In this document: positions 13,545 to 53,884 of the stretch, piece after piece
How positions within the stretch are numbered: the first letter of the stretch is position 1
Layout of the letters: each line of letters opens with the position of its first letter
From: Bacteroidales bacterium
GTDB taxonomy: Bacteria > Bacteroidota > Bacteroidia > Bacteroidales > F082
Direction: 5' to 3'
Length of the DNA: 64,000 bases
Assembly (NCBI GenBank): GCA_017553625.1
Contig: JAFZKP010000017.1
Span: forward strand, 95,015-159,014
Position numbers and translations under genes: made by a program
The notes under the pieces: generated by a model
What the model saw: only the letters and a program-made list of their open reading frames with translations
Told to the model about the DNA's origin: nothing
The model's database searches: none

Positions 13545-14612
13545 ATGGCAAAAAGATTAAACATTCTGGCTATTGTGATGTTGTTTTTCATCACTTCAAT
13601 CGCTGCACAACAGAACAAACAGCAGTATAAGATGGGTCTTGTGGGTTTCTACAACCTTGAAAATCTTTACGATACAATCAACGACCCGAACAAGAATGAT
13701 GAAGAGTTCCTTCCTGAAGGCAAAAACGCATGGAACACTCACAAATACGTGACGAAACTGCACAACATGGCTTATGCCATATCGACGATAGGCACCGACA
13801 AGAACGACAAGTTCAACACTCCTGAAGGGCTGTGGGTGCTTGGCGTTTCAGAAATCGAGAACCGCACCGTGCTCGAAGACCTCGTGGCACAGCCTGAAAT
13901 CGCCGACCGCAACTACCAGATAGTGCATTACGACTCGCCAGACCGCCGTGGTGTAGACGTGGCCTTGCTTTACAACCCGAAGTTTTTCAGGGTGACAAAC
14001 CATAAATCATACCGCTTGGTGGTTCCCAACCAACCAGACTTCATCTCCCGCGACCAGCTCGTGGTGTCGGGCATCCTCGACGATGAGGAGTTCAGCTTCA
14101 TCGTGATGCACTGGCCTTCACGCTATGGCGGCGAGAAACGCTCACTTCCAGGACGTATGGCTGCCGCTCACCTTTGCCGTCATATCGCCGACTCCATCCT
14201 TGCGGAAAAACCTAACGCGAAAATTGTGATGATGGGCGACTACAACGACTATCCTACTAATAAGAGCATCATCGACGGACTGCGTGCCAAGGGTCGTGTT
14301 GAGGATATGAAAGGCGACGATTTCTTCAACCCTATGTGGAAGATGCACAAAAACGGCGAAGGCACCAACTACTACCGCGACGTGAAAGGCGTCCTCGACC
14401 AATGTATCATAACACCTGCATTGCTCAAAGACGAGAACGACCCGTTCGCGACATACCAGATGTACAAACCGATGGTTCACTCGAAGGAATTCCTGAAACA
14501 ACACGACGGACGTTACAACGGCTACCCGTGGCGTTCATTTGCAGGCGGTGTGTGGCAGGGAGGATACAGCGACCATTTTCCGGTTTATTTGATTTTATTG
14601 AAAAAAATGTAA
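13545..14612 (+). CDS. Secreted endonuclease/exonuclease/phosphatase-family protein
   Basis: A 355-residue exported protein: signal MAKRLNILAIVMLFFITSIAAQ, then the metal-dependent EEP fold (DNase I-like). Visible active-site motifs are the Asn of GFYNLENLYD, the Glu of VSEIENRTVLEDL, MHWPSR, GDYNDYP, and a terminal SDHFPV with the catalytic His. It most likely cleaves nucleic acid or a phosphodiester in the periplasm or outside the cell. It is divergent from the TonB receptor/DUF5689 unit. Its stop codon overlaps the start of a family B palindrome that fills the whole gap to murF-alr. Confidence 0.86.
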   Translation: MAKRLNILAIVMLFFITSIAAQQNKQQYKMGLVGFYNLENLYDTINDPNKNDEEFLPEGKNAWNTHKYVTKLHNMAYAISTIGTDKNDKFNTPEGLWVLGVSEIENRTVLEDLVAQPEIADRNYQIVHYDSPDRRGVDVALLYNPKFFRVTNHKSYRLVVPNQPDFISRDQLVVSGILDDEEFSFIVMHWPSRYGGEKRSLPGRMAAAHLCRHIADSILAEKPNAKIVMMGDYNDYPTNKSIIDGLRAKGRVEDMKGDDFFNPMWKMHKNGEGTNYYRDVKGVLDQCIITPALLKDENDPFATYQMYKPMVHSKEFLKQHDGRYNGYPWRSFAGGVWQGGYSDHFPVYLILLKKM

Positions 14613-14636
14613 GGGCGAATAATGATTCGCCCCTAC
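14612..14636. repeat. Family B palindrome between convergent genes
   Basis: The GGGCGAAT / ATTCGCCC inverted repeat with a short central AATG and a CCTAC tail spans all 25 bases between the nuclease and murF-alr stop codons. It probably also works as a two-way transcription barrier, although no long U-tract is present. Confidence 0.85.
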
Positions 14637-14637
14637 G

Positions 14638-17190
14638 TTATTCCTTTACGTAGATTCGTTTAACACGTTGTGAGATTCGTGTCATGATTTCGTATGGAAT
14701 CGTGTCGCAGGCTTCCGCTATGACCTCAATAGGATGGTTGTCATCGAACAGCACTGCTGTGTCGTCCTCCAGACAATCAATGCCGGTGACATCAATCATG
14801 GTGAGGTCCATGCAGATGTTACCGATGATTGGTGCAGGTTTGCCGTTGACCCAGAAACATGCCTTTCCGTTGCCAAGCTGACGGCGCAGTCCATCAGCAT
14901 AACCGATAGGAATTACTGCTATTCTTGAAGGTTTCGTTATCTTTCCATGACGACCGTAGCCGATGGTCTCGCCTGGTCCGTATTCCTTAATCTGCTTGAT
15001 TGTCGTCTTCAATGACATCACGTTATGCAGCTTGCCTCGGTCTTCGTCGCAAATCGCAACGCCGTAAACACCGATGCCCAAGCGCACCATATCATATTGA
15101 TACTCTGTGAATCGCGAGATGCCAGCGGTGTTCAGAATATGACGAATGATTTTGTATGGGAACGACGCAACAATCTTCGAGCTCATCAGCTCAAACTGTT
15201 TAATCTGATGCATCACGAAATCATCTTCCTCTGGCATGTCGCTTGTAGCGAAATGCGAGAAAACGCTCATGATTTTAAGCTTCGGATTGGACTTCACACG
15301 CTCAATCAGCGCGTCAATCTCATCAGGAAGGAATCCCAAGCGATGCATGCCTGTATCCACTTTGATATGAATACCGACAGGCTTGTCAAGAGGTTTATCC
15401 AATTGATTTATAGCGTCTTCCAGCTGCGACAGGCAACGGAAACTGTAAATGTCAGGCTCAAGATTGTTAAGAATGATGGTGTCGAAAGTGTTGGTCTCCG
15501 GCGTCATCACCATGATTGGCAGTTTTATGCCTCTGTTACGCAGCTCCACGCCTTCGTCGGCATACGCAACAGTAAGATAATCAACATGATGGAAAGCGAG
15601 AGCATTTGAGACCTCGTAATTACCGCTGCCGTAAGCAAAAGCCTTGACCATCACCATCATCTTGGTGTCTTTTTTCAGCTTTCCGCGATAATAATTCAGG
15701 TTTTTCACAAGGTTGTCGAGATTGATTTCAAGCACCGTCTCATGAGATTTCTGCTGCAGAACCTTCATGATACGCTCAAACTCGAAGCTACGCGCACCTT
15801 TAAGCAAAACAATCTGATTCTCAAACATTTTCATCGGGTGGCTGGCGAGAAAATCGGTCGTTGTCGGATAATAGTAGGAGGTTCCTCGCTGCGCTCGGAA
15901 TGACAGGCATTGTTGCATGTTTCGACAAATTGCTTCACCAATGCCGATAAAGGTGTCAACGCCCTTGTTTTCAATAAGTTGCGCGATGTATTTATAGAGG
16001 TCTTCTTCTTTCAGTTCGCTTTGCAGGATGTCGGAAAGAATCAGCACCTTGTTATCGTGATGCTGCGCGTTCATGAAGTCGAGGGCGATGGCGAGAGCGT
16101 TTCTGTCGTTGTTATACGAATCGTTGATAATCAGACAATTACGCACACCTGCTTTCAGTTCCATTCGCATCTCCACAGATTCGAGATTTGCCATCCGTTT
16201 CGCGATGACATCATTCGGCACATTCAGCAGCAACGCCACACACCAGCAGTTGATAGCGTTTTCGACGGATGCATCGTCGATGAACGGGATAGTGATGGCA
16301 ATGGTATTATTGTGGAATTCCCCGACAATTCGTGTATAAACGCGATTAATTGCGTCCGCACCACCGTTTTCATCATGTATTATCGTTGAAACAAACAAAT
16401 CAACATTTTTATCCTTTGTTCCCCATGAAAATGCAGGAATCCCATGTTTTTCGACAACATTTTTAATCTCAACATTATCCTTACAATAAATCAAATGTCC
16501 AATTCCATCAAACAATTTAATCTTCTCTTCGATTTTCTGCTCTATGCTATCGAAATTTTTGCCGTGTGCCGATCCTATATTCGTGAAAACGCCTATTGTT
16601 GGTTTTATTATCTCACGCAGTTTGTCCATCTCGCCCGGGCGTGAGATGCCTGCTTCGAAAACCGCCACATCATGAGTGGAATTCATCTGCCACACCGAGA
16701 GCGGCACGCCAATCTGGGAATTATAACTCTTCGGGCTTCTGCACACCGACATCGAAGGCGACAAAATCTGGTAAAGCCACTCCTTCACCACCGTTTTGCC
16801 GTTGCTTCCGGTGATGCCAACAACAGGAATGTCGAATTGCATACGATGATATGCCGCAAGCATCTGCAATGCCGCAAAAGTGTCATTGACAACAATATAC
16901 GCCGCATTTGGACATGGAATAGACGCAATTAATCGCGTCTCCACGTAGTTTTCAATAAAATTCCTGCTAACAACAAAGGCTTTTACGCCTTTTTCATACA
17001 ATTCGGCAATATATTTATGACCGTCATTTCTTCCGCTGCTAAGTGCAAAAAACAAAGTGTTCTCAGCATCTATCAGCAACCGGCTGTCAAAAAGAATATC
17101 CTTTATAATATATTCATCTGATTGATTACCAATCACTTCTCCTCCAACAACGGAAGCAATTTTCCTTATCGTATAAATCTCATTTTGCAT
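14638..17190 (-). CDS. murF-alr: Bifunctional MurF / alanine racemase fusion
   Basis: An 850-residue fusion typical of Bacteroidota. Residues 1-~460 are UDP-N-acetylmuramoyl-tripeptide:D-Ala-D-Ala ligase with the ATP loop GITGSNGKT at 125-133, YNSQIGVPLSV and NDSYNNDR. Residues ~478-850 are a PLP alanine racemase with the Schiff-base Lys in MVKAFAYGSG near 515 and RLGIGVYG further on. It makes D-Ala and adds D-Ala-D-Ala to the peptidoglycan precursor in the cytoplasm. A family D palindrome at 15877-15907 is read in frame as part of the MurF C-terminal region (SFRAQRGTS, residues ~428-438). A TAACTTTG box at 17195-17202 leaves almost no leader, so the mRNA may be nearly leaderless. Confidence 0.94.
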   Translation of the reverse strand: MQNEIYTIRKIASVVGGEVIGNQSDEYIIKDILFDSRLLIDAENTLFFALSSGRNDGHKYIAELYEKGVKAFVVSRNFIENYVETRLIASIPCPNAAYIVVNDTFAALQMLAAYHRMQFDIPVVGITGSNGKTVVKEWLYQILSPSMSVCRSPKSYNSQIGVPLSVWQMNSTHDVAVFEAGISRPGEMDKLREIIKPTIGVFTNIGSAHGKNFDSIEQKIEEKIKLFDGIGHLIYCKDNVEIKNVVEKHGIPAFSWGTKDKNVDLFVSTIIHDENGGADAINRVYTRIVGEFHNNTIAITIPFIDDASVENAINCWCVALLLNVPNDVIAKRMANLESVEMRMELKAGVRNCLIINDSYNNDRNALAIALDFMNAQHHDNKVLILSDILQSELKEEDLYKYIAQLIENKGVDTFIGIGEAICRNMQQCLSFRAQRGTSYYYPTTTDFLASHPMKMFENQIVLLKGARSFEFERIMKVLQQKSHETVLEINLDNLVKNLNYYRGKLKKDTKMMVMVKAFAYGSGNYEVSNALAFHHVDYLTVAYADEGVELRNRGIKLPIMVMTPETNTFDTIILNNLEPDIYSFRCLSQLEDAINQLDKPLDKPVGIHIKVDTGMHRLGFLPDEIDALIERVKSNPKLKIMSVFSHFATSDMPEEDDFVMHQIKQFELMSSKIVASFPYKIIRHILNTAGISRFTEYQYDMVRLGIGVYGVAICDEDRGKLHNVMSLKTTIKQIKEYGPGETIGYGRHGKITKPSRIAVIPIGYADGLRRQLGNGKACFWVNGKPAPIIGNICMDLTMIDVTGIDCLEDDTAVLFDDNHPIEVIAEACDTIPYEIMTRISQRVKRIYVKE
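15877..15907. repeat. Family D palindrome inside murF-alr
   Basis: The element has the form GAGGTTCCTCGCT...CGGAATGACAGG, with the CGCTGCG/CGCTCGG core differing from its relatives but keeping the flanks. It lies entirely inside the murF-alr frame and adds about ten residues without breaking it. The same element occurs at 21325, 26095, 36763 and 49941. Confidence 0.85.
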
Positions 17191-17304: not shown

Positions 17305-18324
17305 ATGATGATCCAAAGTAAAATATCTGAACTTCCTAAAATAGGCATCACTCAAGGTGATATCAATGGTATTGGTTATGAGGTGATTCTCAAATCTTTG
17401 TCCGACTCACGCATTTTCGACTCTTTCATCCCAGTCATTTACGGACAATCGAAAGTCTTTTCTTATTACAAGAAAAATTTCGGCATGGAGGAGATGTCAT
17501 ACACCTTGATTCGCAATGCTTCGCAGGCTTTGCCGAAACGCATCAACATCATCAACCACACTGACGAAGAGCTTAAAATTGAACCTGGTTTTTCGACTTC
17601 CATTGCTGGAAAAGCCTCTTTCGCCGCCTTGAAAATGGCGACAAACGACCTGAAAAGCGGTCTCATAGACGCGATGGTCACAGCTCCTATCAACAAAGGG
17701 AACATACAGTCGGAGAACTTCCGTTTCAATGGTCAGACCGATTACATCAAGACGTTATTTCCTGAAAGTGAATACATTACGTTACTCGTAAGCGACAAAC
17801 TACGCATCGGGTTAGTCACCAACCACATATCGCTGAAAGACGTTCCGGGAGCCATCAGCAAAGAGCTTATCATCAAGAAACTGAAACTCATCAACAAGAC
17901 GCTTGTCAACGACTTCAACATCGTGGCACCAAGGATTGCCGTTCTCGGTCTGAACCCGCATGCGGGCGAAAACGGCGTGATGGGCAACGAAGAGAAAGAC
18001 ATCATCAGTCCTGCCATTGAGGTCGCCAAGAGCAACGGAGCTCTCGTTTTCGGTCCGTTCCCTGCCGACAGCTTCTTCGGCTCAGGCGCATGGGTTAAAT
18101 ACGACGGCGTGCTCAGCATGTACCACGACCAGGGTCTCACCCCGTTCCGCACCCTCGCCGCCGACGGTGGCGTCAGCTTCACAGCAGGACTGCCCGTCGT
18201 GAGAACATCCACAATTCACGGCACCGGATATGACATCGCAAACAAAAATATCGCAGACCCGGATTCATTCAGGCATGCGATATTTTTGGCAATTGACATT
18301 CTAAATAATCGTAGGGGCGAATAA
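17305..18324 (+). CDS. pdxA: 4-hydroxythreonine-4-phosphate dehydrogenase
   Basis: A 339-residue enzyme of the DXP-dependent pyridoxal phosphate pathway. It oxidises 4-phosphohydroxythreonine with NAD. It has the N-terminal IGITQGDINGIGYEVILK motif, metal-ligand His residues in TNHISLKDV, NPHAGENG and YHDQGLTPFR, and the usual TAPINKGN motif. The substrate-contact stretch reads GQTDYI. Two adjacent ATGs (17305, 17308) are possible starts. The last four residues (RRGE) and the stop codon come from the start of a family B palindrome, so the original C-terminus has been replaced or trimmed. Confidence 0.93.
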   Translation: MMIQSKISELPKIGITQGDINGIGYEVILKSLSDSRIFDSFIPVIYGQSKVFSYYKKNFGMEEMSYTLIRNASQALPKRINIINHTDEELKIEPGFSTSIAGKASFAALKMATNDLKSGLIDAMVTAPINKGNIQSENFRFNGQTDYIKTLFPESEYITLLVSDKLRIGLVTNHISLKDVPGAISKELIIKKLKLINKTLVNDFNIVAPRIAVLGLNPHAGENGVMGNEEKDIISPAIEVAKSNGALVFGPFPADSFFGSGAWVKYDGVLSMYHDQGLTPFRTLAADGGVSFTAGLPVVRTSTIHGTGYDIANKNIADPDSFRHAIFLAIDILNNRRGE

Positions 18325-18369
18325 TCATTCGCCCGAAAATCGTAATGGGCGAAAAAATTTCGCCCCTAC
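18311..18369. repeat. Double family B palindrome between pdxA and the deaminase fusion
   Basis: Two GGGCGAA hairpins lie at 18315-18334 and 18347-18365 in one GTAGGGGCG...CGCCCCTAC frame. They cover the entire convergent gap, encode the last codons and stop of pdxA, and end just before the stop of the minus-strand deaminase gene. Confidence 0.85.
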
Positions 18370-19427: not shown

Positions 19428-19447
19428 AGATGCGATGAATCGCATCT
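19428..19447. repeat. Family A-like palindrome (AGATGCGAT / ATCGCATCT)
   Basis: A perfect nine-base stem with a two-base loop lies just upstream of the deaminase fusion gene. It keeps the GAGA(T/C)GCG frame of family A with compensating bases in both arms. Confidence 0.7.
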
Positions 19448-19474
19448 TTACTGTATTCTATTAAACGTAAACTG

Positions 19475-20077
19475 CTAAGACGGACGGCTGTCTGTCTCTA
19501 CCCTTATATCGTTAATCCATTTCTCAATCTTGACTGGACTGTATTCCTTCATCCTATCGAATAACTCCTTCGGGTCGTCGGTAACGATGATATTTTTATT
19601 GTGATCTCCGCGAATGAAACCGTCGCGCACTCCCCTGTCAATCCATCTCACGAGGTCATCGTAATAGCCCAATGTATTATACAATGCGACAGGCTTCTCC
19701 ATAAGTCGAAGTTGGTCAGCGACAACGACTTCCGAAAACTCATCGAGGGTACCGAAACCGCCCGGCATCGCAATGAAGGCGTCCGATTCGCGCATCAGGA
19801 TATCCTTACGCTCAGCCATAGTCTTGGTCGGAATCATCTTGGTGATTGTAGGATGACCGATCTCGTGAGCGAGCAGGAAATCAGGCATCACGCCGACTAC
19901 TTCGCAGCCGCGTTCAAGCATCTTGTCGGCGATGACATTCATCAGACCGACGCTGCCGCCGCCGTAATAAAGGGTGCAGCCGTTGTCGGCGAGAACCTCG
20001 CCAAGCCGTGCAGCCGCCTCAGCGTAACGATTGTCGAAGCCCATGCTGCTTCCGCAGAAAACACAAATGTTTTTCAT
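19475..20077 (-). CDS. LOG-family phosphoribohydrolase-like Rossmann protein
   Basis: A 200-residue protein starting MKNICVFCGSSMG and carrying the family signature PGGFGTLDE. It has the Rossmann-like strand GGGSVGLMNVIAD. Relatives hydrolyse cytokinin riboside 5'-monophosphates or other nucleotide N-glycosides; the bacterial substrate is generally unproven. A longer open frame to 20185 is rejected as a start because it is read from the family E repeats. The last residues (ETDSRPS) and the stop come from a family A palindrome at 19478-19501. Confidence 0.88.
   Translation of the reverse strand: MKNICVFCGSSMGFDNRYAEAAARLGEVLADNGCTLYYGGGSVGLMNVIADKMLERGCEVVGVMPDFLLAHEIGHPTITKMIPTKTMAERKDILMRESDAFIAMPGGFGTLDEFSEVVVADQLRLMEKPVALYNTLGYYDDLVRWIDRGVRDGFIRGDHNKNIIVTDDPKELFDRMKEYSPVKIEKWINDIRVETDSRPS
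19478..19501. repeat. Family A palindrome at the 3' end of the LOG gene
   Basis: An AGACGGAC / GTCTGTCT stem with a CTAC flank. On the minus strand it encodes the terminal residues of the LOG-family protein and lies next to its stop codon. Confidence 0.7.
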
Positions 20078-20107
20078 TATCAATTTTTTGCAAAAATACG
20101 AAATTTT

Positions 20108-20210
20108 TAATATGCTGCTTCGCAGTATTTGAAAAATGTGCTGCTTCGCAGAATCTGTGGGCTTCACCCAATGACCGAAGGTCACACATTTAGTCGAAGA
20201 CTACACATTT
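20108..20210. repeat. Family E hairpin cluster with variable stems
   Basis: Five short hairpins lie between the M20 and LOG genes: CTGC-TTC-GCAG twice, a TGGGCTTCACCCA-type hairpin, TGACC-TTC-GGTCA and AGTC-TTC-GACT. Most are spaced by AATGTG or CACATT. The loops are nearly constant while the stems change in both arms. The cluster begins directly after the M20 stop codon. Confidence 0.8.
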
Positions 20211-21307: not shown

Positions 21308-21324
21308 ATTTCTGCTTAATTTAT

Positions 21325-21353
21325 GAGATTCCTCACTTCGTTCGGAATGACAG
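21325..21353. repeat. Family D palindrome upstream of the M20 gene
   Basis: The element reads GAGATTCCTCACTTCG followed by TTCGGAATGACAG. On the minus strand it translates as CHSERSEESHK-like peptide when left in frame. It sits in the 5' leader of the M20 gene. Confidence 0.85.
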
Positions 21354-21380
21354 GAACCGGAATGCAAAAGTAAAGTTTTT

Positions 21381-21412
21381 TTTGAATTTTTGAATAAAAA
21401 TTTCTATATTTG
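21381..21412 (+). promoter_or_regulatory. Promoter of the Fic gene (TTTG-N20-TATATTTG)
   Basis: TTTG at 21381-21384 and TATATTTG at 21405-21412 are 20 bases apart. Because the box lies inside the longest open frame (from 21390), translation must start further on, at the ATG at 21432. Confidence 0.7.
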
Positions 21413-21431
21413 CAGGCTAATTCAACTGCAC

Positions 21432-22649
21432 ATGTCAGATCACGATGTTATACAAACGTATATAAACTTCGACGAGTATATCCGTCAAGGGGAGCCGTCG
21501 CAACGCGAAGCTGCGTACGCTTGGAGTACTGCTATTGGACTTCAGGCTGTTGACGGGCTGAAGACATCGGACTATCTGAACGATTTGGCCCGTCGTAATA
21601 TTGAGGGCGAAATTACCATCGATGAGGTCGGAAAGTTGCTTGACAGCTATTATGAGAGCAAGACGGTGCGTGAAAATGGTGATATTGACAAGGAAGAAGC
21701 CGACAAAGCGTCTAAAAATATTAAAAAAATTCTGTCTGTAAAGACCATAGATTTCTCAACAAAAGGATATATTTCAGTTCATCGCAGAATTTTTGAAGGT
21801 GTGATGAAACATGCAGGAAAATTGCGTGAATATGACATTTCGAAAAGAGAATGGATCCTTGAGGGCGATACCGTTGATTATTTGAATTGGGAGGATTTGC
21901 ATCGCGCTTTGGATTATGACATTGAACAAGAACGCAACTTCAGCTATAAAGGCATCACTAACGACCAGTTGGTTGCCCACATCACTAAATTCGTCTCGGG
22001 TTTGTGGCAGATTCATCCTTTTGGAGAGGGTAATACACGTACAACAGCGGTATTTACAATTCAGTATCTGCGCTTATTGGGTTTTGATGTTGAAAACGAC
22101 CTTTTTGCCAAGCATTCCTGGTATTTCCGCAATGCGTTGGTGAGAGCTAATTACAAGAATGCCAAAAAAGGAATCGATTTCAGTCCAGTTTATTTGGAGA
22201 GATTTTTCCGTAATTTGTTATTTGGTGAACAATGGGTTTTGCGGAATCGCTATTTGCATATTCATCCTCCAAAGGAATGGAGTATACAGCCAAATTTGGC
22301 AGTACAGGACAAGTACCGAACAACCACCCCCACAAGTACCCGAACAAGTACCGAACAAGTACCCGACAAGTACCCGACAAGTACCCGACAAGTACCCGAC
22401 AAGTTACATACTAACAATCTGAATATTATAAAGTTGGTGCAATTAGTTGGTGAGCATGAAATGTCTGTAAAAGAGATGATTACATTAGTTGGACTTAAAG
22501 ATCGTGAAAATTTTTTGAATGTATTCTTAACTCCTGCTATTAACGAAGGGTATATTCGTTTGCTCCATCCCGACAAGCCCCATCATCCTCGCCAGAAGTA
22601 TCTTTTGACTACAAAAGGCATCTTGCTTAATAACGACATCAAGAGTTAA
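21432..22649 (+). CDS. Fic-domain protein with C-terminal winged helix
   Basis: A 405-residue protein (MSDHDVIQTY...). The Fic core carries the catalytic motif HPFGEGNTR (HPFx[E]GNxR), which transfers AMP or another phosphate-linked group to a target hydroxyl. Upstream are helices with VDGLKTSDYLNDLARRNIEGEIT, typical of Bacteroidota Fic proteins. The linker after ~290 consists of an 11/12-bp tandem repeat encoding VPDKYPTSTRQ-type units, then a winged-helix-like domain (SVKEMITLVGLKDRENFLNVF). The target is unknown. It is monocistronic with its own promoter, and the nearest upstream gene is divergent. Confidence 0.88.
   Translation: MSDHDVIQTYINFDEYIRQGEPSQREAAYAWSTAIGLQAVDGLKTSDYLNDLARRNIEGEITIDEVGKLLDSYYESKTVRENGDIDKEEADKASKNIKKILSVKTIDFSTKGYISVHRRIFEGVMKHAGKLREYDISKREWILEGDTVDYLNWEDLHRALDYDIEQERNFSYKGITNDQLVAHITKFVSGLWQIHPFGEGNTRTTAVFTIQYLRLLGFDVENDLFAKHSWYFRNALVRANYKNAKKGIDFSPVYLERFFRNLLFGEQWVLRNRYLHIHPPKEWSIQPNLAVQDKYRTTTPTSTRTSTEQVPDKYPTSTRQVPDKLHTNNLNIIKLVQLVGEHEMSVKEMITLVGLKDRENFLNVFLTPAINEGYIRLLHPDKPHHPRQKYLLTTKGILLNNDIKS
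22309..22405 (+). repeat. 11/12-bp tandem repeat in the Fic linker
   Basis: About eight copies of ACAAGTACCCG (some with an extra A or a missing C) lie in the coding sequence between the Fic domain and the winged helix. The unit is free of stop codons in all three frames. Loss or gain of a single unit shifts the frame: an alternative frame runs to a stop at 22422. Confidence 0.88.
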
Positions 22650-24281: not shown

Positions 24282-24286
24282 AAAGG

Positions 24287-24314
24287 TAGAGACGGTCAGC
24301 CGACCGTCTGTACA
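24287..24314. repeat. Family A palindrome between the tlpA-like and DUF6029 genes
   Basis: GTAGAGACGGTC AGCC GACCGTCTGTAC forms a perfect eight-base inner stem (GAGACGGTC-type). It lies five bases after the tlpA stop. Confidence 0.85.
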
Positions 24315-26090: not shown

Positions 26091-26094
26091 ACAG

Positions 26095-26122: not shown

Positions 26123-26143
26123 AAATAGAAAAAAGTATTAAAA

Positions 26144-28060: not shown

Positions 28061-28098
28061 CCCGTAGGGCGCAAGGCATGTCTTGCGCCAACGGGATG
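28061..28098. repeat. Family C palindrome after era, first copy
   Basis: CCCGTAGGGC GCAAG GCATGTC TTGCGCC AACGGGATG has a GGCGCAAG / CTTGCGCC stem inside a constant CCCGTAG...ACGGGATG frame. It begins one base after the era stop codon. Confidence 0.85.
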
Positions 28099-28110
28099 TT
28101 AAATAAAACA

Positions 28111-28146
28111 CGTAGGGCATAAGGCTGGCCTTATGCCAATAGAATG
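28111..28146. repeat. Family C palindrome after era, second copy
   Basis: CGTAGGGCATAAGGCTGGCC followed by TTATGCCAATAGAATG. The inner stem is GGCATAAGG / CCTTATGCC, different from the copy at 28061 in both arms, with the same flanks. The two copies are joined by an AT-rich spacer (TTAAATAAAACA). Confidence 0.85.
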
Positions 28147-33597: not shown

Positions 33598-33642
33598 GAC
33601 GGACTGCGTCCGTTGGGGAGACGGATGCAAATCCGTCTCTAC
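33598..33642. repeat. Two adjoining family A-like palindromes upstream of glgB
   Basis: An ACGGAC-TGC-GTCCGT hairpin is followed by a GAGACGGAT-GCAA-ATCCGTCTC hairpin. The second begins right after the amylase stop codon on the minus strand. Confidence 0.8.
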
Positions 33643-33644: not shown

Positions 33645-35042
33645 CTATATTTCTAAAATTTTATATTCTCCTTTTTGCAATTGAATCTCATATTTCGATT
33701 CGCAACCTCCAATTAACTGTCGGGCGTCATCAGGTATCGTCACTGTCACATTTCGACCTTCATTCAAATTGAAATTTATGACAATCAATAATTTATCATC
33801 GCCATGATAACGCAGGAACGCGTAAACAAATTGCGGGTCGAAATTGTTATACCACGGATTCGCCCACATCAGGTCGTAAAACGCGCCGTGCAGGATGGCG
33901 GGATGGGATTCGCGAAAATGCAACAATTTTTTATACCAATCATATATTCGGGCGAATGATGATTCGCCCCTACGAATCATGGATGGCATGTACGCGTAAT
34001 CAAAAATGGACGTTTTCCCATTATCGGAATCTGCGGCATCCTCACCATATTCCTGGCCATTGTAAATCATGAACGGGCCGCGGTTCATCAAGGCCGACAG
34101 GGCAACAAACGGAAACGCGTTTTCGGGTTTCTGCATAAAAAACCGTGACGCCAAACGAAGCTCGTCGTGGTTTTCCATGAATCGTAACATATTGTCATCC
34201 AATCCGTTGAGATTTTTCCACACATCGGAAATGCTGTCGGCACGCTGACCATAACGATAGATGTTATCCAAGGTGTTGTACAGCCCGACCTTGTCGTAAA
34301 GATAATCGAAACCTGCTTCCACATAGCGGCGATACAGATTCGGTTGGTAAATCTCCGCTATCATAATGACATTGAACGACTTACGCAGCTCGGCAATAGC
34401 CCAGCGCCAGAATTCCACCTGCACCATCTCCGCCATGTCACAACGGAAGCCGTCAACGCCTTTCCCACACCAGAACTGCATGATTTTCAGCATTTTATCC
34501 CATGTATCATGATTGGTGTAGTTCAGTTTCACGGTGTCGTACCAGTCGTTCAACGAAGGCGTTGGTGAGAACACGTCATTGCCAGTGGCTTTTGCCGGAA
34601 ACTCATGATAATTGTCACCGTTTTCAGTCGGGGCAACGAACTTCTGATTCGGTAAAACATAGAAGTTTTCGTCCGTGAAATCGCCTTTATATTCGCGTGC
34701 CAGATGATTCGGAACGAAGTCGATAATCACTTTAAGTTCATGAGAATGAATACGTTCTACGGTCTTTTCAAACTCCTCCATCCTATTCGCCTCGTTATCA
34801 GCCAAGTCGGGATCGATGTCGTAGTAGTCGACGATGGCGTAAGGCGAGCCAGCGTTTCCTTTTGTCACGGCAGGATTGGTGTCGCGCCAGCCCGAGTGAC
34901 GTATCACGCCAGTAAGCCATATATGGCTGACGCTCAACGACTTGATTCTTTCAATCTCATCATCGCTGATGTCGCTGAACGTGCCGCAACGCTTGTCTGG
35001 CGTGGCACCGTAAACCCGTGGAAAAAGCTGGTATATTATCAT
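33645..35042 (-). CDS. GH13 alpha-amylase-family enzyme with an in-frame palindrome
   Basis: A 465-residue cytoplasmic GH13 enzyme with no signal peptide. The barrel has VIIDFVPNHLA, the nucleophile Asp in GVDGFRCDMAEMV (~residue 199), the acid Glu in MIAEIYQP (~228) and the third Asp in MENHDE (~290). It acts on alpha-glucans, most likely stored glycogen or maltodextrins given glgB next door. At 33950-33973 a family B palindrome is read in frame as RRGESSFAR between the catalytic barrel and the C-terminal sandwich. Its ATG overlaps the upstream S9 peptidase stop by four bases. Confidence 0.9.
   Translation of the reverse strand: MIIYQLFPRVYGATPDKRCGTFSDISDDEIERIKSLSVSHIWLTGVIRHSGWRDTNPAVTKGNAGSPYAIVDYYDIDPDLADNEANRMEEFEKTVERIHSHELKVIIDFVPNHLAREYKGDFTDENFYVLPNQKFVAPTENGDNYHEFPAKATGNDVFSPTPSLNDWYDTVKLNYTNHDTWDKMLKIMQFWCGKGVDGFRCDMAEMVQVEFWRWAIAELRKSFNVIMIAEIYQPNLYRRYVEAGFDYLYDKVGLYNTLDNIYRYGQRADSISDVWKNLNGLDDNMLRFMENHDELRLASRFFMQKPENAFPFVALSALMNRGPFMIYNGQEYGEDAADSDNGKTSIFDYAYMPSMIRRGESSFARIYDWYKKLLHFRESHPAILHGAFYDLMWANPWYNNFDPQFVYAFLRYHGDDKLLIVINFNLNEGRNVTVTIPDDARQLIGGCESKYEIQLQKGEYKILEI
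33950..33973. repeat. Family B palindrome inside the amylase gene
   Basis: GGGCGAAT-GATG-ATTCGCCCCTAC lies wholly within the coding sequence and keeps the frame. Confidence 0.88.
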
Positions 35043-39447: not shown

Positions 39448-39484
39448 TTTCAAGCAGTTTTAAACAATTATCTTAAAAAACGTG

Positions 39485-39514: not shown

Positions 39515-39531
39515 AACAAATTAATAAGATT

Positions 39532-40431: not shown

Positions 40432-40460
40432 AATGCAATTTTTTGTTTAAATATATCAAA

Positions 40461-40484
40461 AGAGACGCGATAAATCGCGTCTGT
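40461..40484. repeat. Family A palindrome upstream of cbpA
   Basis: AGAGACGCGAT-AA-ATCGCGTCTGT gives a perfect nine-base stem. It lies in the 84-base gap between the LiaF-like gene and cbpA. Confidence 0.8.
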
Positions 40485-40515
40485 AAAAGAAAATTTATAT
40501 TGTTTTTTAAAAAAA

Positions 40516-41406: not shown

Positions 41407-41652
41407 AATGTGCAACCTTCGGTTGAATGTGTCGCGATGCGAAATGTGCAACCTTCGGCTGAATGTGTCGCAAAGCGAAATGTGCAGCCTTCGGCTGAAT
41501 GTGCCGCAAAGCGAAATGTGCAGCCTTCGGCTGAATGTGTCGCAAAGCGAAATGTGCAGCTTCGGCTGAATGTGTCGCAAAGCGAAATGTGCAGCCTTCG
41601 GCTGAATGTGTCGCAAAGCGAAATGTGCAGCCTTCGGCTGAATGTGGTTCGC
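41407..41652. repeat. Family E array: seven units of two alternating hairpins
   Basis: The array has a 36-bp period. Each unit is AATGTG + CAGCC-TTC-GGCTG hairpin + AATGTG + TCGC-AAA-GCGA hairpin. Early units carry paired changes (CAACC/GGTTG; TCGCGATGCGA), and one unit is 35 bases (a C missing). Since 36 is a multiple of three, both strands stay open over long stretches and produce false ORFs. It lies between the pspC-like gene and the acyltransferase gene. Confidence 0.92.
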
Positions 41653-41668
41653 TTCGATTGTTGGAAAG

Positions 41669-43450: not shown

Positions 43451-43467
43451 CACTTCCTTTTAAACTG

Positions 43468-43496
43468 CAAATATACACTTTTTTTGAATACGACAA
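43468..43496 (-). promoter_or_regulatory. Promoter of the two-domain acyltransferase (TTG-N18-TATATTTG)
   Basis: On the minus strand TTG (43494-43496) and TATATTTG (43468-43475) are 18 bases apart, 17 bases before the ATG. Confidence 0.65.
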
Positions 43497-43531
43497 GAAT
43501 ATTTTATTTTATTAAAAATAACGAAAGGGTG

Positions 43532-43561
43532 TTGCCATGTAAAAATTTTTTAATATATTTG
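43532..43561 (+). promoter_or_regulatory. Promoter of iorAB (TTG-N19-TATATTTG)
   Basis: TTG at 43532-43534 and TATATTTG at 43554-43561 are 19 bases apart, a full consensus match, 42 bases before the iorA ATG. Confidence 0.75.
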
Positions 43562-43603
43562 CCGAATATAATTTTTTGAATTTCAAACTAAAAATATATC
43601 ATA

Positions 43604-45184
43604 ATGAAGAAAATCTTATTACTTGGAGATGAGGCTATTGCACAGGGCTTTATTGATGCCGGAGGCAGTGCCATCAACAGTTATCCGGGCACTCCTTCCA
43701 CACAGATTACGGAGTATGTCATAAACTCTAAACAGGCCAAGGAACAGGGCGTTATCGCCAACTGGTGTGCCAATGAGAAGACGGCTCTCGAGGCTTCTTT
43801 AGGTGTGGCATACGCCGGGAAACGTGCCATGACATGTATGAAGCACGTCGGTCTTAACGTGTGTGGCGACCCGTTTATGAATGCCGCCATCATTGGAACC
43901 AAGGGCGTTTTGATTGTTGTTGCAGACGATCCGAGCATGTTCTCGTCGCAGGACGAGCAGGACAGCCGTTTTTACGGTCACTGGGCGATGATACCAATGT
44001 TGGAGCCTTCAAACCAGCAAGAGGCTTACGACATGGTACATTATGGTTATGAGTTGAGCGAAAAGCTTGGCACTCCGGTGCTTTACCGTATTCCTACCCG
44101 TTTAGCACACAGCCGCGCCGGTGTTGAACTGAAACCTGCCCGCAAGCAGAACGAGCTCACCGAACCAGCCGACGCAAAGTCGTTCGTGCTCCTTCCAGCC
44201 AATGCAAAACGTCTTTACAGAGAGTTGATAGACAAACAGCCTGCATTCACAAAGATGTCTGAGGAGTCAGGATTCAACAAATTCATTGAAGGCACTGACA
44301 AGAAAATCGGTATCATCACAACAGGTATAGCATACAACTACCTCATGGAGAACTTCCCTGGCGGAAAATGCCCATATCCGGTGGTGAAGATTACTCAATA
44401 TCCGTTGCCATACAACATGATTAACCGTCTTTATGACGAATGCGACGAGATTCTCGTTCTCGAAGACGGACAGCCATTCGTGGAGGAGCAGATTAAAGGC
44501 TTCCTCGGCAAGGGAAAGAAAGTGAGAGGCCGTCTTGACGAGACCATCCGCCGTGACGGAGAACTCAACGCCGAGAAAGTTGCCAAGGCATTGGGAATGA
44601 AGGCAGAGGCAACTTTAGCTGTGCCGGAAGTCGTTACCAACCGTCCTCCAGCGTTGTGCCAGGGCTGCCCTCACGTCGACAGCTACACCGCATTGAACGA
44701 GGTGATGGCAAACCACAAAGGCGGCAAGGTGTTTGGCGACATCGGCTGCTATACCTTGGGCTTCAATATGGGCGCTATCAACACGACAGTGTGCATGGGT
44801 GCTTCAATCACAATGGCTAAGGGAGCCAGCGAGGTAGGCATCTTCCCGAGCGTGGCAGTCATCGGTGACGGCACATTCGGACACAGCGGCTTGACAGGCC
44901 TCATGGACTGCGTCAACGAGAAGGCCAACGTCGTCGTCATGATTCTTGACAATGACATCACCGCCATGACAGGTGGTCAGCCATCTTCGGCACACAACAA
45001 GATCCGCCGCATCTGCGAAGGTCTCGGTGTCGAGCCCGAGCATATCCGCGACATCATCCCGTTGCCAAAGAACCACGAGGAAAACGTGAGAATCATAGAA
45101 GAAGAAGTAAATTACAACGGTGTTTCTGTGATCATCCCTCACCGCACCTGCATCGTCGAGTTGAAAAAACATTTGAAGAAATAA
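43604..45184 (+). CDS. iorA: Indolepyruvate:ferredoxin oxidoreductase, alpha subunit
   Basis: A 526-residue thiamine-diphosphate enzyme that oxidatively decarboxylates aryl pyruvates from aromatic amino acids, or runs in reverse, with ferredoxin. The N-terminal pyrimidine-binding half has GGSAINSYPGTPSTQI and NEKTALEASLG. The C-terminal half has PPALCQGCPHVDSY and the diphosphate-binding GDGTFGHSGLTGLMD...DN. The eight-cysteine ferredoxin-like C-terminal module of archaeal IorA is absent; the protein ends HRTCIVELKKHLKK. Electrons may leave through a separate ferredoxin. iorB follows after a palindrome. Confidence 0.9.
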   Translation: MKKILLLGDEAIAQGFIDAGGSAINSYPGTPSTQITEYVINSKQAKEQGVIANWCANEKTALEASLGVAYAGKRAMTCMKHVGLNVCGDPFMNAAIIGTKGVLIVVADDPSMFSSQDEQDSRFYGHWAMIPMLEPSNQQEAYDMVHYGYELSEKLGTPVLYRIPTRLAHSRAGVELKPARKQNELTEPADAKSFVLLPANAKRLYRELIDKQPAFTKMSEESGFNKFIEGTDKKIGIITTGIAYNYLMENFPGGKCPYPVVKITQYPLPYNMINRLYDECDEILVLEDGQPFVEEQIKGFLGKGKKVRGRLDETIRRDGELNAEKVAKALGMKAEATLAVPEVVTNRPPALCQGCPHVDSYTALNEVMANHKGGKVFGDIGCYTLGFNMGAINTTVCMGASITMAKGASEVGIFPSVAVIGDGTFGHSGLTGLMDCVNEKANVVVMILDNDITAMTGGQPSSAHNKIRRICEGLGVEPEHIRDIIPLPKNHEENVRIIEEEVNYNGVSVIIPHRTCIVELKKHLKK

Positions 45185-45186: not shown

Positions 45187-45214
45187 GTAGAGACGTTTCA
45201 TGAAACGTCTGTAC
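45187..45214. repeat. Family A palindrome between iorA and iorB
   Basis: GTAGAGACGTTTCATGAAAC followed by GTCTGTAC is a perfect inner palindrome, ten-base arms. It lies three bases after the iorA stop. Confidence 0.85.
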
Positions 45215-45254: not shown

Positions 45255-45827
45255 ATGAAAAAAGATATCGTTTTGTGTGGTGTTGGTGGTGACGGCATTG
45301 TGTCAGTTGCCAAAATCATCTCAGATGCCGCCCTCAACATGGGCATGAACCTGAAACAATCGGAAATCCACGGCATGTCGCAGCGTGGCGGCTCGGTGTT
45401 CTCGCACCTGCGTCTGTCGGACGAGCCTATCTTCGCCGATGTCATTCCTGAAGGAAAGGCCGATATTATCCTGTCGAGCGAGCCTATGGAGGCATTGCGC
45501 TATCTGCCATGGCTCAGCAAGGAAGGCTGGGTGATTACCAACTCCGACCCGTTCATCAATATCAGCAACTACCCTGACATTGAGAAGGTGTATGCCGAGT
45601 TGAAGAAACTCAAACACGTGGTGTCGTTCGATGCCAGCGAGATTGCAAAACAACTCAAGGCTCGTTCCAACATGGTGCTTCTCGGAGCTACAGTGCCTTA
45701 TCTCGGCATCTCCATAGAGAAGGTAGAAGAAGCAATCGCACATATCTTCGGCAAGAAAGGCCAGGATGTGGTTGACCTGAACATCAAGGCTGTGAGAGCG
45801 GGGTACGAGCAGGCAGTTAACAGTTAA
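45255..45827 (+). CDS. iorB: Indolepyruvate:ferredoxin oxidoreductase, beta subunit
   Basis: A 190-residue 2-oxoacid:acceptor oxidoreductase gamma-type subunit, starting DIVLCGVGGDGIVSVAKIIS (nucleotide-binding-like Gly-rich loop). It has HGMSQRGGSVFSHLRL and LGATVPYLGISIEKVEEAI, all standard for IorB. It pairs with IorA. The last residues and the stop codon fall inside an 8-bp tandem repeat, so the natural C-terminus may have been altered slightly. Confidence 0.92.
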   Translation: MKKDIVLCGVGGDGIVSVAKIISDAALNMGMNLKQSEIHGMSQRGGSVFSHLRLSDEPIFADVIPEGKADIILSSEPMEALRYLPWLSKEGWVITNSDPFINISNYPDIEKVYAELKKLKHVVSFDASEIAKQLKARSNMVLLGATVPYLGISIEKVEEAIAHIFGKKGQDVVDLNIKAVRAGYEQAVNS

Positions 45828-45892
45828 TCAGTTAATCAGTTAATCAGTTAATCAGTTAATCAGTTGGTCAGTTAATCAGTTGGTCAGTTAAT
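45814..45892 (+). repeat. 8-bp tandem repeat at the 3' end of iorB
   Basis: About ten units of CAGTTAAT, two of them CAGTTGGT. The first units encode the end of IorB and supply its TAA stop. An 8-bp unit is not a multiple of three, but the stop lies in the second unit, so copy-number change mostly alters the untranslated tail. Confidence 0.9.
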
Positions 45893-45894
45893 CA

Positions 45895-45926
45895 TTGGGA
45901 CAAGGCAGGCCTTGTCCCAACAGGAT
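45895..45926. repeat. Family C palindrome, first of a triplet
   Basis: A TTGGGACAAGG / CCTTGTCCCAA stem is followed by CAGGATG. It starts right after the 8-bp tandem repeat. Confidence 0.85.
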
Positions 45927-45937
45927 GAGAAATAAAA

Positions 45938-45975
45938 CCCGTAGGGCGGAAGGCATGCCTTCCGCCAACGGGATG
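45938..45975. repeat. Family C palindrome, second of a triplet
   Basis: CCCGTAGGGCGGAAGGCATG followed by CCTTCCGCCAACGGGATG. The stem GGCGGAAGGC / GCCTTCCGCC differs from its neighbours in both arms. Confidence 0.85.
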
Positions 45976-45988
45976 AGAGATTAAAACA

Positions 45989-46016
45989 CGTAGGGAGAAG
46001 GCAAGCCTTCTCCCTA
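45989..46016. repeat. Family C palindrome, third of a triplet
   Basis: CGTAGGGAGAAGGCAAGCC followed by TTCTCCCTA. The stem is TAGGGAGAAGGC / GCCTTCTCCCTA. Spacers between the three copies are related AT-rich stretches (GAGAAATAAAAC, GAGAGATTAAAAC). Confidence 0.85.
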
Positions 46017-46042
46017 TTTAAAATATTGAAAAATAAAAAATT

Positions 46043-47260
46043 ATGAGAAATTTCACACCGTTTTTGATTTTATTGTTGTTTTTGTTTTCCTGCAAAGGAG
46101 GTGACGAAAACACCACGACCAGAAAGGAGTCGAGGAGGAAGCCGGAGCCGAAGTATTTGTACGGCATCTGCATTGATTCCCTTGACGTTGTTGAAGGCAA
46201 TGTCAAGAAAAACGAGTTTCTGGCGAACATCCTGCAAAAAGAAGGTGTGAGTTACAATACCATTAATTATATCGACAGGAACCAACGCAAGGTTTTTGAC
46301 GTGCGGAAGATAAAAGTCGGGAACAAGTACACGTTTCTGATGTCGCGCGACAGCGTTCCGCAGGCGAAATACTGGATTTATGAAATCGACAGGACAAACT
46401 ACGCCGTTTTCAAGCTAACCGATTCATTGTCAGCATGGAGAGGCGAAAAAGAAGTCATCACCGAGATTGAGCATGTCGGCGTTGAGATAAAATCGAGCCT
46501 ATGGAACGCCATGGCTGAAGCAGGCTGCGACGCGAGTCTGATTCTCGAATTGTCGGACATATACGCCTGGACCATCGACTTCTTCGGCATTCAGGAAGGC
46601 GACTCGTGCAAGGCGGTCTTCGAGAAGAAATACATCGCGGGCGACAGCGTGTCATTTGGCATCGGCAATGTCCTGGCGGCGTATTTCAAGAACAACGGCG
46701 AAGGGAAATATGCTTTCAGCTATGAGCAAAACGGCAGGAAAGAGTATTTCGACGAGAACGGCGACAACATGCGCAAGGCGTTCTTGAAGGCGCCTCTGAA
46801 CTACCGTCGTATCAGCTCAAAGTTCTCCAACGGCAGGATGCACCCAGTATATCATGTGGTACGTCCGCATCACGGGGTTGACTATGCGGCACCAACAGGC
46901 ACGCCAGTCCAATCCATCGGCGACGGCACCGTGATAGCGAAGGGATGGGACAAGAAAGGCGGCGGCAACTACGTGAAAATCAAACATAACAGCACTTACA
47001 CCACCACTTACATGCACCTGAGCAAGTTCGGCAAGGGAATCTCGCAGGGATGCAAAGTGAAGCAGGGACAGACAATTGGATATGTCGGGAGTACCGGCGC
47101 ATCCACGGGACCGCATCTCGACTTCAGGTTGCAGAAAAACGGCACGTACATCGACCCGTTGAAGTTCAAGTCGCCGAGTGCGGAGCCTGTGAAGAAGGAA
47201 AACCGCGAAGAATACAAGAAGCACATTGAAAATCTGATGAAGATTTTAAAGGAGCATTGA
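46043..47260 (+). CDS. M23-family metallopeptidase lipoprotein
   Basis: A 405-residue lipoprotein with lipobox LFSC at about residue 17. After a ~230-residue N-terminal part with LysM-like and strand-rich features, the LytM/M23 domain starts at HVVRPHHGVDYAAPTGTPV (first zinc His and Asp) and continues through TTYMHLS to STGPHLDFRLQ (second zinc motif, HxD variant of HxH seen in many Bacteroidota proteins). It is predicted to cut peptidoglycan cross-bridges in the periplasm or to activate an amidase. It stands alone behind the family C triplet. Confidence 0.88.
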   Translation: MRNFTPFLILLLFLFSCKGGDENTTTRKESRRKPEPKYLYGICIDSLDVVEGNVKKNEFLANILQKEGVSYNTINYIDRNQRKVFDVRKIKVGNKYTFLMSRDSVPQAKYWIYEIDRTNYAVFKLTDSLSAWRGEKEVITEIEHVGVEIKSSLWNAMAEAGCDASLILELSDIYAWTIDFFGIQEGDSCKAVFEKKYIAGDSVSFGIGNVLAAYFKNNGEGKYAFSYEQNGRKEYFDENGDNMRKAFLKAPLNYRRISSKFSNGRMHPVYHVVRPHHGVDYAAPTGTPVQSIGDGTVIAKGWDKKGGGNYVKIKHNSTYTTTYMHLSKFGKGISQGCKVKQGQTIGYVGSTGASTGPHLDFRLQKNGTYIDPLKFKSPSAEPVKKENREEYKKHIENLMKILKEH

Positions 47261-47416: not shown

Positions 47417-47444
47417 GTAGAGACGCGCCATGGCACGTCTCTAC
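47417..47444. repeat. Family A palindrome at the edge of the gene remnant
   Basis: GTAGAGACGCGCCATGGCAC followed by GTCTCTAC. The outer GTAGAGACG/CGTCTCTAC arms are perfect. It lies between the remnant and the stop of the sorting-domain protein. Confidence 0.85.
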
Positions 47445-53652: not shown

Positions 53653-53690
53653 GAGCGAATGATGATATGGGTGAATAATGATTCACCCTT
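53653..53690. repeat. Family B-like palindrome in the leader of the hemerythrin gene
   Basis: A GGGTGAAT-AATG-ATTCACCC hairpin (53669-53688) with an adjoining GAGCGAATGATGATAT half-element. Both arms carry the C-to-T/G-to-A change relative to GGGCGAAT, so the pairing is kept. Confidence 0.8.
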
Positions 53691-53706
53691 ACAATCCGCA
53701 AAAATA

Positions 53707-53856
53707 ATAAAAATTCCAAATAATTGGAAATAATCATTTTTAGGTATCAAATTTCTGAAAAATCATCAATTATGGGGAGATGCCATGTGATGTTTTCGCG
53801 ATATTTTTGCAATCAGAATGAATGACAAAAACAGGCCATATTTTTAGTTTAGGAAC
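53707..53856. other. Gap between the hemerythrin promoter and glsB
   Basis: No gene is recognised. It includes a TTCCAAATAATTGGAA imperfect palindrome at 53714-53729 and AT-rich sequence. Confidence 0.4.
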
Positions 53857-53884
53857 GTAGAGACGTCACAGTGTGGCGTCTCTA
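53857..53884. repeat. Family A palindrome at the 3' end of glsB
   Basis: GTAGAGACGTCACAGTGTGGCGTCTCTA supplies the last residues and stop codon of glsB on the minus strand. Confidence 0.85.

What the first reader, a model, noticed from the sequence alone, without database searches (positions are those of the whole stretch)
14612..53884. At least five families of short palindromes with compensating stem changes, packed into a housekeeping region
More than twenty palindromes (families A-E in the feature list) lie in gene gaps, gene ends and inside genes. Within each family the frame or loop is constant while stem bases change together in both arms: A stems GGTC/GACC, CGAT/ATCG and TTTC/GAAA; C stems GCAAG, CATAAGG and GGAAGGC; B GGGCGAAT and GGGTGAAT. 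That pattern means pairing, not sequence, is preserved or copied. This differs from a simple spreading repeat, where copies share one sequence. No transposase of the REP-associated (RAYT) type is in the window, so the moving or diversifying agent is unknown. Similar GTAGAGACG and GTAGGGGCGAAT hairpins are known to be common in some cyanobacterial and Bacteroidota genomes, but I know of no mechanism that explains stem diversity.
Basis: partly seen in the sequence, partly recalled or inferred. Interest (0 to 1): 0.75.

Follow-up and report, generated by a model that had tools for sequence, protein, structure and literature searches.

The report
Transposase-specific REP hairpins in a Bacteroidales
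The short DNA hairpins scattered through this gut-type bacterium are REP elements, tiny passengers of small transposases; each transposase lineage tends to have its own hairpin stem, which explains most of the stem diversity, and intergenic places that hold one hairpin often hold a different one in a related species.

Summary
In detail: 32 perfect palindromes against about 10 in shuffles. Families A, B and C share one design: a GTAG foot, then mostly an 8-bp stem and 4-base loop (GTAG 30-fold enriched). Of 40 RAYT-like loci fetched from the genus, 37 carry GTAG hairpins (19 on both sides), mostly one stem type per locus; in 18 of 18 loci with in-gene and outside hairpins the types agree. Stem type follows the RAYT tree with the fewest possible changes (14; shuffles 28). 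Stem diversity is thus mainly RAYT/REP co-diversification, known from Pseudomonas and Stenotrophomonas; in-gene REPs are known for TnpAREP subclass 2.4. Between species at 92% identity, same-type orthologs show 9 pairs changed on one arm and 0 on both, while 7 of 38 sites hold a different REP. Slot re-use exceeds chance across relatives, not with G081 alone. Family C does vary its outer stem with pairing kept. New member of a known kind; in-place REP replacement is the unusual part.

The parts
14609..14636 (-). Family B GTAG REP, GGGCGAAT stem, one foot imperfect
   Evidence: no REP at the G081 orthologous site
16921..16944 (-). Family A (CGAT type) REP inside the Alr/MurF-type ORF 14638-17190
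   Evidence: present with changes in G081
18311..18369 (.). Two adjacent family B REPs
   Evidence: partly deleted in G081
19428..19451 (-). Family A REP, CGAT type with the AGATG variant
19478..19501 (-). Degenerate family A REP at the end of ORF 19475-20185
24286..24313 (+). Family A REP, GGTC type
   Evidence: no REP in G081
28064..28137 (+). Two family C REPs with different outer stems, between the Era-like and Der-like genes
   Evidence: G081 has one fused, partly unpaired copy
33615..33642 (-). Family A REP, GGAT type (the type that flanks RAYT L120 of this genome)
   Evidence: different REP types in G067 and G087
33950..33973 (-). Family B REP in a re-used slot
   Evidence: same stem in G067, G081, G102; G133 keeps one arm; ATGTG type in G116; chimera in G136; empty in G041, G087, G105
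40459..40486 (-). Family A REP, CGAT type, decayed foot, in a re-used slot
   Evidence: 10 of 15 relatives carry a hairpin in this gap, of several stem types
45187..45214 (+). Family A REP, TTTC type, private to this genome among those compared
   Evidence: no GTAG REP in the gap in 20 relatives; G128 has an unrelated hairpin there
45890..46020 (+). Three family C hairpins (the first without a GTAG foot) in a re-used slot
   Evidence: 16 of 19 relatives carry REP hairpins in this gap, several types; none in G014, G105, G133
47417..47444 (.). Family A REP, GTGCC type, double foot GTAG..CTAC
53665..53692 (-). Family B REP with a compensated pair (GGGTGAAT/ATTCACCC)
   Evidence: G116 has a half-matching B hairpin here
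53857..53884 (+). Family A REP, TCAC type, overlapping the 3' end of ORF 53866-54912
   Evidence: hairpins of other stems at about the same junction in relatives

Best explanation
Families A, B and C are GTAG-tagged REP elements mobilised by REP-associated tyrosine transposases (RAYT/TnpAREP, close to subclass 2.4). Shown: the GTAG foot and hairpin, RAYT genes with matching hairpins beside and inside them, and stem type following the RAYT tree. Inferred: the RAYT recognises the GTAG foot, the hairpin form and part of the stem, so the stem acts as an address; new types spread when a RAYT lineage changes its address. Both arms differ together because a REP is copied or replaced as a whole hairpin, after which single copies decay on one arm at a time. 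For family C the data suggest a looser RAYT that reads the foot, the inner AAGGCATGCCTT and the pairing, leaving the outer pairs free to vary.
For: GTAG precedes stems 68 times against 2.2 expected. Two divergent RAYTs in this genome: L120 with GGAT-type REPs on both sides, L121 with two CGAT-type REPs upstream. 37 of 40 fetched RAYT-like loci carry GTAG hairpins: upstream in 32, downstream in 23, both in 19, inside the gene in 19; in-gene type equals outside type (or a close variant) in 18 of 18. Tree of 37: 14 changes, the minimum; shuffled mean 28.1, 0 of 200 as low; all 19 RAYT pairs at 80% identity or more share a type (near-copies add to this clustering). Orthologous RAYT loci L122 (G081) and L130 (G067): upstream and in-gene REPs both differ as TTTC against GTGCC, in neighbouring DNA 84-89% identical. 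GTGTG-type copies are 14-33 in four genomes with that RAYT, median 0 and at most 15 in 95 others. Only PDB match at E up to 1 is 4ER8, TnpArep, E=0.0032. 17 same-type orthologs with G081: 9 one-arm pair changes (3 of them at one indel), 0 both-arm. One C-type RAYT locus (L126) carries REPs with four different outer stems.
Against: No RAYT match at the thresholds used in several REP-bearing genomes of 90-99% completeness (G079, G041, G105), so copies persist without it or the RAYT was missed. No RAYT with the exact family B (GGGCGAAT) or GGTC REPs was found; nearest are L360 with GGGCGCAC downstream and L115 with GTGG-GCGAATT on both sides. The cognate-abundance test is confounded by clade: genomes with the CAAAA RAYT also carry more GTGTG copies. 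Three of 40 loci had no REP, 21 of 40 lacked REPs on one side or both, and some (L127, L133, L140, L141) carry extra REPs of another or variant stem. Stem labels were assigned by hand. The CGAT label falls on two branches; a Planktothrix RAYT (at most 42% identical to any row) sits beside a GTGCC-type REP. Transposition was not tested.
Confidence: 0.88

Rival explanations
1. Stems diversify in place by compensating pair changes, through selection for an RNA hairpin or through hairpin-templated (quasipalindrome) repair that copies one arm onto the other.
For: Family C: 16 distinct cores in 19 copies, many with pairs changed on both sides and still paired. CGAT cores with AGATG/CATCT (8 copies) and CACGG against TACGG differ by one compensated pair. 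Site 53857: G041 TTAG..CTAA and G085 GTTGAGGCG..CGCCTCAAC look compensated. Second C at 45945: GGCGG in G000, GGCGC in G081, with a similar downstream flank. One of my seven replacements, L034:16364, keeps the GCATGC centre and could instead be a C copy with several compensated pairs.
Against: Same-type orthologs between G000 and G081: 9 one-arm, 0 both-arm; few of these are family C. A types are discrete and repeated, and differ as whole hairpins.
Confidence: 0.3
2. The re-used intergenic places are merely permissive or mechanistically favoured insertion sites; different REPs were gained and lost there independently, with no replacement of one REP by another.
For: REP gaps are mostly unidirectional. 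Re-use is significant only with several relatives: G081 alone gives 3 of 23 against 7 of 127, p=0.18. Weak sequence preference exists: T before GTAG in 33 of 55, A+T-rich flanks. Di Nocera 2013 (PMC3733652, passages) notes different REPs at about the same site of recB in two Xanthomonas species.
Against: Re-use persists after matching gap length and number of relatives: 9 of 26, expected 4.08, p=0.003. No strong target motif (at most 0.47 bits upstream; downstream up to 0.93 bits, largely the second foot, 0.68 in copies without it), yet some junctions coincide to a few bases. L055:9181 in G081: an A-type hairpin at the foot of a C-type REP whose right half remains.
Confidence: 0.5
3. The hairpins are termini of a known insertion sequence or MITE.
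For: A Y1 transposase (IS200-like, L001) lies on the same contig.
Against: The scan of L001 found no GTAG hairpin of families A-C near that gene. Flanks of the 24-nt copies show no conserved longer element (14 bases each side).
Confidence: 0.03

Closest known systems
GTAG-tagged REP superfamily (Di Nocera 2013, PMC3733652)
   Same: GTAG foot, short stem with small loop, sub-families with alternative complementary stem residues, mostly between unidirectional or convergent genes, sometimes in genes
   Different: That survey lists GTAG repeats in Proteobacteria, Cyanobacteria, Chloroflexi and the PVC group, and names Bacteroidetes only for CGTC repeats
TnpAREP/RAYT subclass 2.4 (Corneloup 2018, PMC6006769)
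   Same: Found in Bacteroidetes and Cyanobacteria, 'double foot' REPs, in-frame REPs inside the transposase gene between HuH and Tyr
   Different: Strict motif YIxNNP in only 8 of 40 loci here. The passages read mention co-evolution with cognate REPs but give no stem type per lineage within 2.4 and no joint switch of outside and in-gene REPs
REP classes and orthoswitch (Nunvar 2010 PMC2817692; Nunvar 2013 PMC3686654)
   Same: RAYT and REP co-diversify; orthologous RAYTs can be flanked by different REP classes; copies persist after RAYT loss
   Different: Gammaproteobacteria; in the parts read, orthoswitch is described for RAYT flanks, not for dispersed copies at orthologous intergenic sites
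REPINs (Bertels and Rainey 2011, PMC3116915)
   Same: RAYT-linked short palindromes; compensatory changes reported in the spacer hairpin
   Different: There the unit is an inverted doublet; here most copies in the window are single hairpins or direct clusters
CGTC-tagged REPs (PMC3733652)
   Same: The window's GGAATGACA family reads TGTC + ATTCC.. on the other strand, as described for CGTC repeats changed to TGTC
   Different: Separate from families A-C; not examined further

Membership tests
GTAG REP superfamily | GTAG at one end of a short stem-loop | tested here: met
   GTAG 68 against 2.2 expected before 8-bp stems
GTAG REP superfamily | High copy number, dispersed | tested here: met
   85 forward and 89 reverse matches of one A pattern; 113 candidates in 844 kb, against 1 in 284 kb of shuffled sequence where the real count is 28
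GTAG REP superfamily | Lie beside a RAYT gene | tested here: met
   L120 and L121 in this genome; 37 of 40 loci in the genus have at least one, 19 on both sides
TnpAREP subclass 2.4 | Motifs NH[IFV]H, WQ, YIxNNP | tested here: inconclusive
   NH[IFV]H 29 of 40, WQ 38 of 40 (37 by script, L151 by eye), YIxNNP 8 of 40, Y[IV]xNN 33 of 40. In this genome L120 has NHVH, WQ, YIENNV; L121 has HHVH, WE, YINDNV
TnpAREP subclass 2.4 | In-frame REP inside the transposase gene between HuH and Tyr | tested here: met
   19 of 40 loci carry one; not the two RAYTs of this genome (L120, L121)
TnpAREP subclass 2.4 | Placement in the published subclass tree | not tested
   Reference sequences of the subclasses were not at hand
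TnpAREP/RAYT | Cleaves its REP in vitro | not testable with these tools
   Bench assay
NCBIfam NF047646 RAYT | Score over the curated cut-off of 80 bits | tested here: not met
   L120 44.1 and L121 37.7 bits; 17 of 99 genus genomes have a match over it. Of 20 held loci over it, L111 and L115 have a pair of like hairpins on both sides with other feet and stems (GCGG, GTGG); L117, L118 and L350 have GTAG hairpins on one side; no A-C pair on both sides was seen
IS200/IS605 element | Transposase gene bounded by its own subterminal hairpins as one mobile unit | tested here: inconclusive
   L001 tnpA has nearby hairpins of another sequence

The most novel reading that the evidence does not exclude
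REPs replace one another in place: a RAYT uses the GTAG foot of a resident REP as its target and puts its own REP there, so a fixed set of intergenic slots is converted from one stem type to another. Stem switching at RAYT loci, including the in-gene copy, would be the same reaction, and would answer how an orthoswitch happens.
Probability: 0.27. Interest if true: 0.66.

Novelty: new member of a known kind. Interest (0 to 1): 0.42.

Why it matters
It gives the unknown agent a name and turns 'unexplained compensating palindromes' into a RAYT/REP system with many addresses in one genus. That genus is a good place to study how a small transposase changes the hairpin it reads: orthologous RAYTs with 79% identical proteins and different stems (L122, L130) exist as natural experiments. 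If in-place replacement holds, REPs are exchangeable occupants of fixed sites, which would change how REP conservation and REP-based typing are read.

Tried and rejected
IS-terminus reading: rejected. PF01797 as the RAYT test: misleading; it showed 30 of 45 genus genomes with a Y1 transposase and 15 of 45 without, and for a while looked like evidence against any RAYT; NF047646 then found the divergent genes. Gap re-use with G081 alone: not significant. Compensation in multi-copy against single-copy variants: no difference, p=0.55. Chimeric hairpins as a common intermediate: 5 of 574 with two or fewer inner pairs, of which one (L227) joins arms of clearly different types. Cognate abundance for the CAAAA type: elevated but clade-confounded. 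Exact family B cognate RAYT: not found in 40 + 30 loci (four of the 30 gave no profile match and were scanned for hairpins only). Rfam on the window: only tRNA and DUF805b. Script counts corrected by eye: one search printed same 18, different 7, none 13, one-side 12; L047:18210 is a different type and L054:6653 is not a GTAG REP, giving 17, 7, 14 and 9. Six non-REP hairpins inside genes were dropped from the 44 ortholog sites before that count. One search uses 55 copies of exactly 24 nt out of 68 with GTAG out of 113 candidates. The 40 RAYT loci were chosen by me from the listed hits, mainly for length of match; four (G000:C21, G067:C18, G060:C22, G076:C47) were noticed because REPs or 25 lay near.
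Full report
What was checked. The window lies in G000, contig C13, bases 95015-159014, of a 2.47 Mb assembly of 52 contigs, 86.7% complete. It holds 32 perfect palindromes against about 10 in 5 shuffles.

One design. In 844 kb of this genome, positions where an 8-bp stem begins are preceded by GTAG 68 times against 2.2 expected; in most of the 68 the spacing is 8 bp, 4 bases, 8 bp. Families A (AGACGNNN), B (GGGCGAAT) and C (GGACAAGG and variants) all have it. A pattern for family A gives 85 forward and 89 reverse matches genome-wide, 0 in the reversed control. Among 119 genomes of the GTDB family it occurs in 45 of 45 members of the genus (this genome included) and in 3 of 74 other genomes. 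The double foot (GTAG..CTAC) is present in 19 of 55 copies of exactly 24 nt.

The agent. PF01797 finds one IS200-like gene in this genome, with no GTAG hairpin of these families found beside it. NF047646 finds three matches in G000; two displayed ones are RAYT-like genes, C34:18288-18737 and C21:10361-10768 (44.1 and 37.7 bits, under the curated cut-off of 80); the third was not displayed. In the genus, 75 of 99 genomes have a match. I fetched 40 RAYT-like loci. Of these, 37 carry GTAG hairpins and 3 do not (L150, L154, L156); 32 have one upstream, 23 downstream, 19 on both sides. In this genome, L120 is flanked on both sides by GGAT-type REPs and L121 has two CGAT-type REPs upstream. Other lineages carry TTTC, GTGCC, ATGTG, GTGTG, CAAAA, TCAC, CACGG-like, GGGGC, CATT, and family C stems. 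Nineteen loci carry a REP inside the transposase frame, after the HuH motif; in 18 of the 18 that also have a REP outside, the type is the same or a close variant. L133, L140 and L141 also carry REPs of another or variant stem. Of thirty further NF047646 loci, 26 match a profile of my RAYTs, 22 of them weakly; L366 carries CACGG type, L367 a CACGG REP in its frame only, L360 two GGGCGCAC copies downstream. Among those that did not match, L111 and L115 have like hairpins on both sides with feet GCGG and GTGG; the L115 stem GCGAATT resembles family B.

Stem type follows the transposase. With labels assigned by hand, the tree of 37 RAYTs needs 14 changes of stem type, the fewest possible for 15 types; shuffles need 28.1 on average and none of 200 is as low. 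All 19 pairs at 80% identity or more share a type. Near-copies contribute to this. One switch is caught: L122 (TTTC) is nested among GTGCC rows, and L122 and L130 are orthologous loci with neighbouring DNA 84-89% identical, in which the upstream and the in-gene REPs both differ in type. The only solved-structure match of L120 is 4ER8, TnpArep (E=0.0032). GTGTG-type copies are 14-33 in four genomes with that RAYT and at most 15 elsewhere (median 0); for CAAAA the excess is weaker, and cross-controls show clade confounding.

How single copies change. Of 113 candidates in G000, 44 had orthologous flanks in the fetched G081 stretches. Six are not REPs and were dropped. Of 38, 17 keep the type, 7 hold a different REP type, 14 hold none or something else (corrected by eye as told under Tried and rejected). 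The 17 show 9 pairs changed on one side, 3 of them at one indel, and none on both. One of the 7, L034:16364, keeps the GCATGC centre and could be a compensated C copy; another, L054:17508, is a chimera in G081. So at this distance individual hairpins mostly decay, and change of type is mostly a change of the whole hairpin.

Slots. Across up to 20 relatives, several gaps hold REPs of different types in different species, while others of similar length hold none: the 45827-46043 gap carries a REP in 17 of 20 genomes and the 40431-40516 gap a hairpin in 11 of 16, both counts including this genome; gaps at 39453-39532 and 43453-43604 in 0 of 15 and 0 of 20. Over all gaps with a relative, 10 of 27 REP gaps have a different REP in some relative against 5 of 132 REP-free gaps, p=6.8e-6. 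With gap length and number of relatives matched it is 9 of 26, expected 4.08, p=0.003; with G081 alone it is not significant. Relatives share ancestry, so these are not independent events. No strong target motif was found, yet some junctions coincide to within a few bases. In G081 at L055:9181 an A-type hairpin sits at the foot of a C-type REP whose right half remains. Replacement at the resident foot is my inference from these; independent insertion into permissive places is not excluded.

What stays unexplained. Family C has 16 distinct cores in 19 copies, many with both-side changes and pairing kept; one C-type RAYT locus, L126, carries four outer stems, so its RAYT probably tolerates any paired outer stem. 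B has the compensated GGGTGAAT copy; CGAT has an 8-copy AGATG variant; the 53857 site has hairpins in G041 and G085 whose outer pairs look compensated.

Prior art. Di Nocera 2013 (PMC3733652; parts 1-3 of 8 read, passages) already describes GTAG REPs with alternative complementary stems. Nunvar 2010 (PMC2817692, passages) and Nunvar 2013 (PMC3686654, parts 1-3 of 4) describe RAYT/REP co-evolution and the orthoswitch, calling its mechanism a matter of speculation. Corneloup 2018 (PMC6006769, passages) describes REPs in frame inside subclass 2.4 genes. Bertels and Rainey 2011 (PMC3116915, passages) note compensatory changes in REPIN spacers. Loper 2012 (PMC3390384) and the RepRanger paper (PMC12306157) were seen as passages. 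The listings and these passages showed no account of REP-for-REP replacement at orthologous intergenic sites; Di Nocera's remark on recB is the nearest. Subscription papers were not searchable.

Organism. The exact GTGCC palindrome occurs in rumen Bacteroidales MAGs, Salinivirgaceae, Cyanobacteria, Patescibacteria and Turneriella (80 of 116 rows listed, scan cut at its limit). The genus itself is unnamed here; Bacteroidales is inferred from gene content and these records.

Noticed in passing
window 15875-15907, 21322-21354, 26093-26125: TTCCTCGC..GCTCGGAATGACA family: on the other strand TGTC followed by ATTCC.., resembling CGTC-tagged REPs; its inner stem also varies; 21 matches of the core TCGGAATGACA (at least two of them look like plain coding DNA by eye) in 844 kb.
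   Followed up: partly
L111 and L115 (also L113): RAYT genes over the NF047646 cut-off with like hairpins on both sides but feet GCGG or GTGG and 7-bp stems (GTGG-GCGAATT in L115): a second REP group in the genus, perhaps kin of family B.
   Followed up: no
window 41381-41682: Tandem array of a 36-bp unit with two small hairpins per unit.
   Followed up: no
window 45813-45902: 8-bp tandem repeat (CAGTTAAT) directly beside the three family C hairpins; several relatives have other short tandem repeats there.
   Followed up: no
window 22309-22404: 11-bp tandem repeat inside ORF 21390-22649.
   Followed up: no
window 30557-30590: Rfam DUF805b cis-regulatory RNA match, 39.8 bits against a gathering score of 35.6.
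   Followed up: no
window about 53740-53857: Block conserved in 7 genomes between two genes (GGGGAGATG..TTTTTGCAATCAGAATGAATGACAAAAA..), beside the re-used REP slot; looks like an unannotated regulatory element.
   Followed up: no
L054 and L057 (G000 C4 about 86-89 kb, C11 about 31-35 kb): Clusters of GGAT-type REPs close together, several absent in G081: apparently recent local spread of the type whose RAYT (L120) is in this genome.
   Followed up: partly
L234 3988-4672: Planktothrix rubescens carries a distant RAYT (at most 42% identical to any row) beside the same 28-base GTGCC-type REP: cross-phylum sharing of one stem.
   Followed up: partly
L001 440-745: IS200-like tnpA near the start of contig C13 with several short hairpins of another sequence downstream (GCGTGCCGGAGGCACGC type).
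   Followed up: no
L155: RAYT frame of G076 whose translation seems by eye to hold three REP-derived peptides in a row at the variable loop.
   Followed up: no
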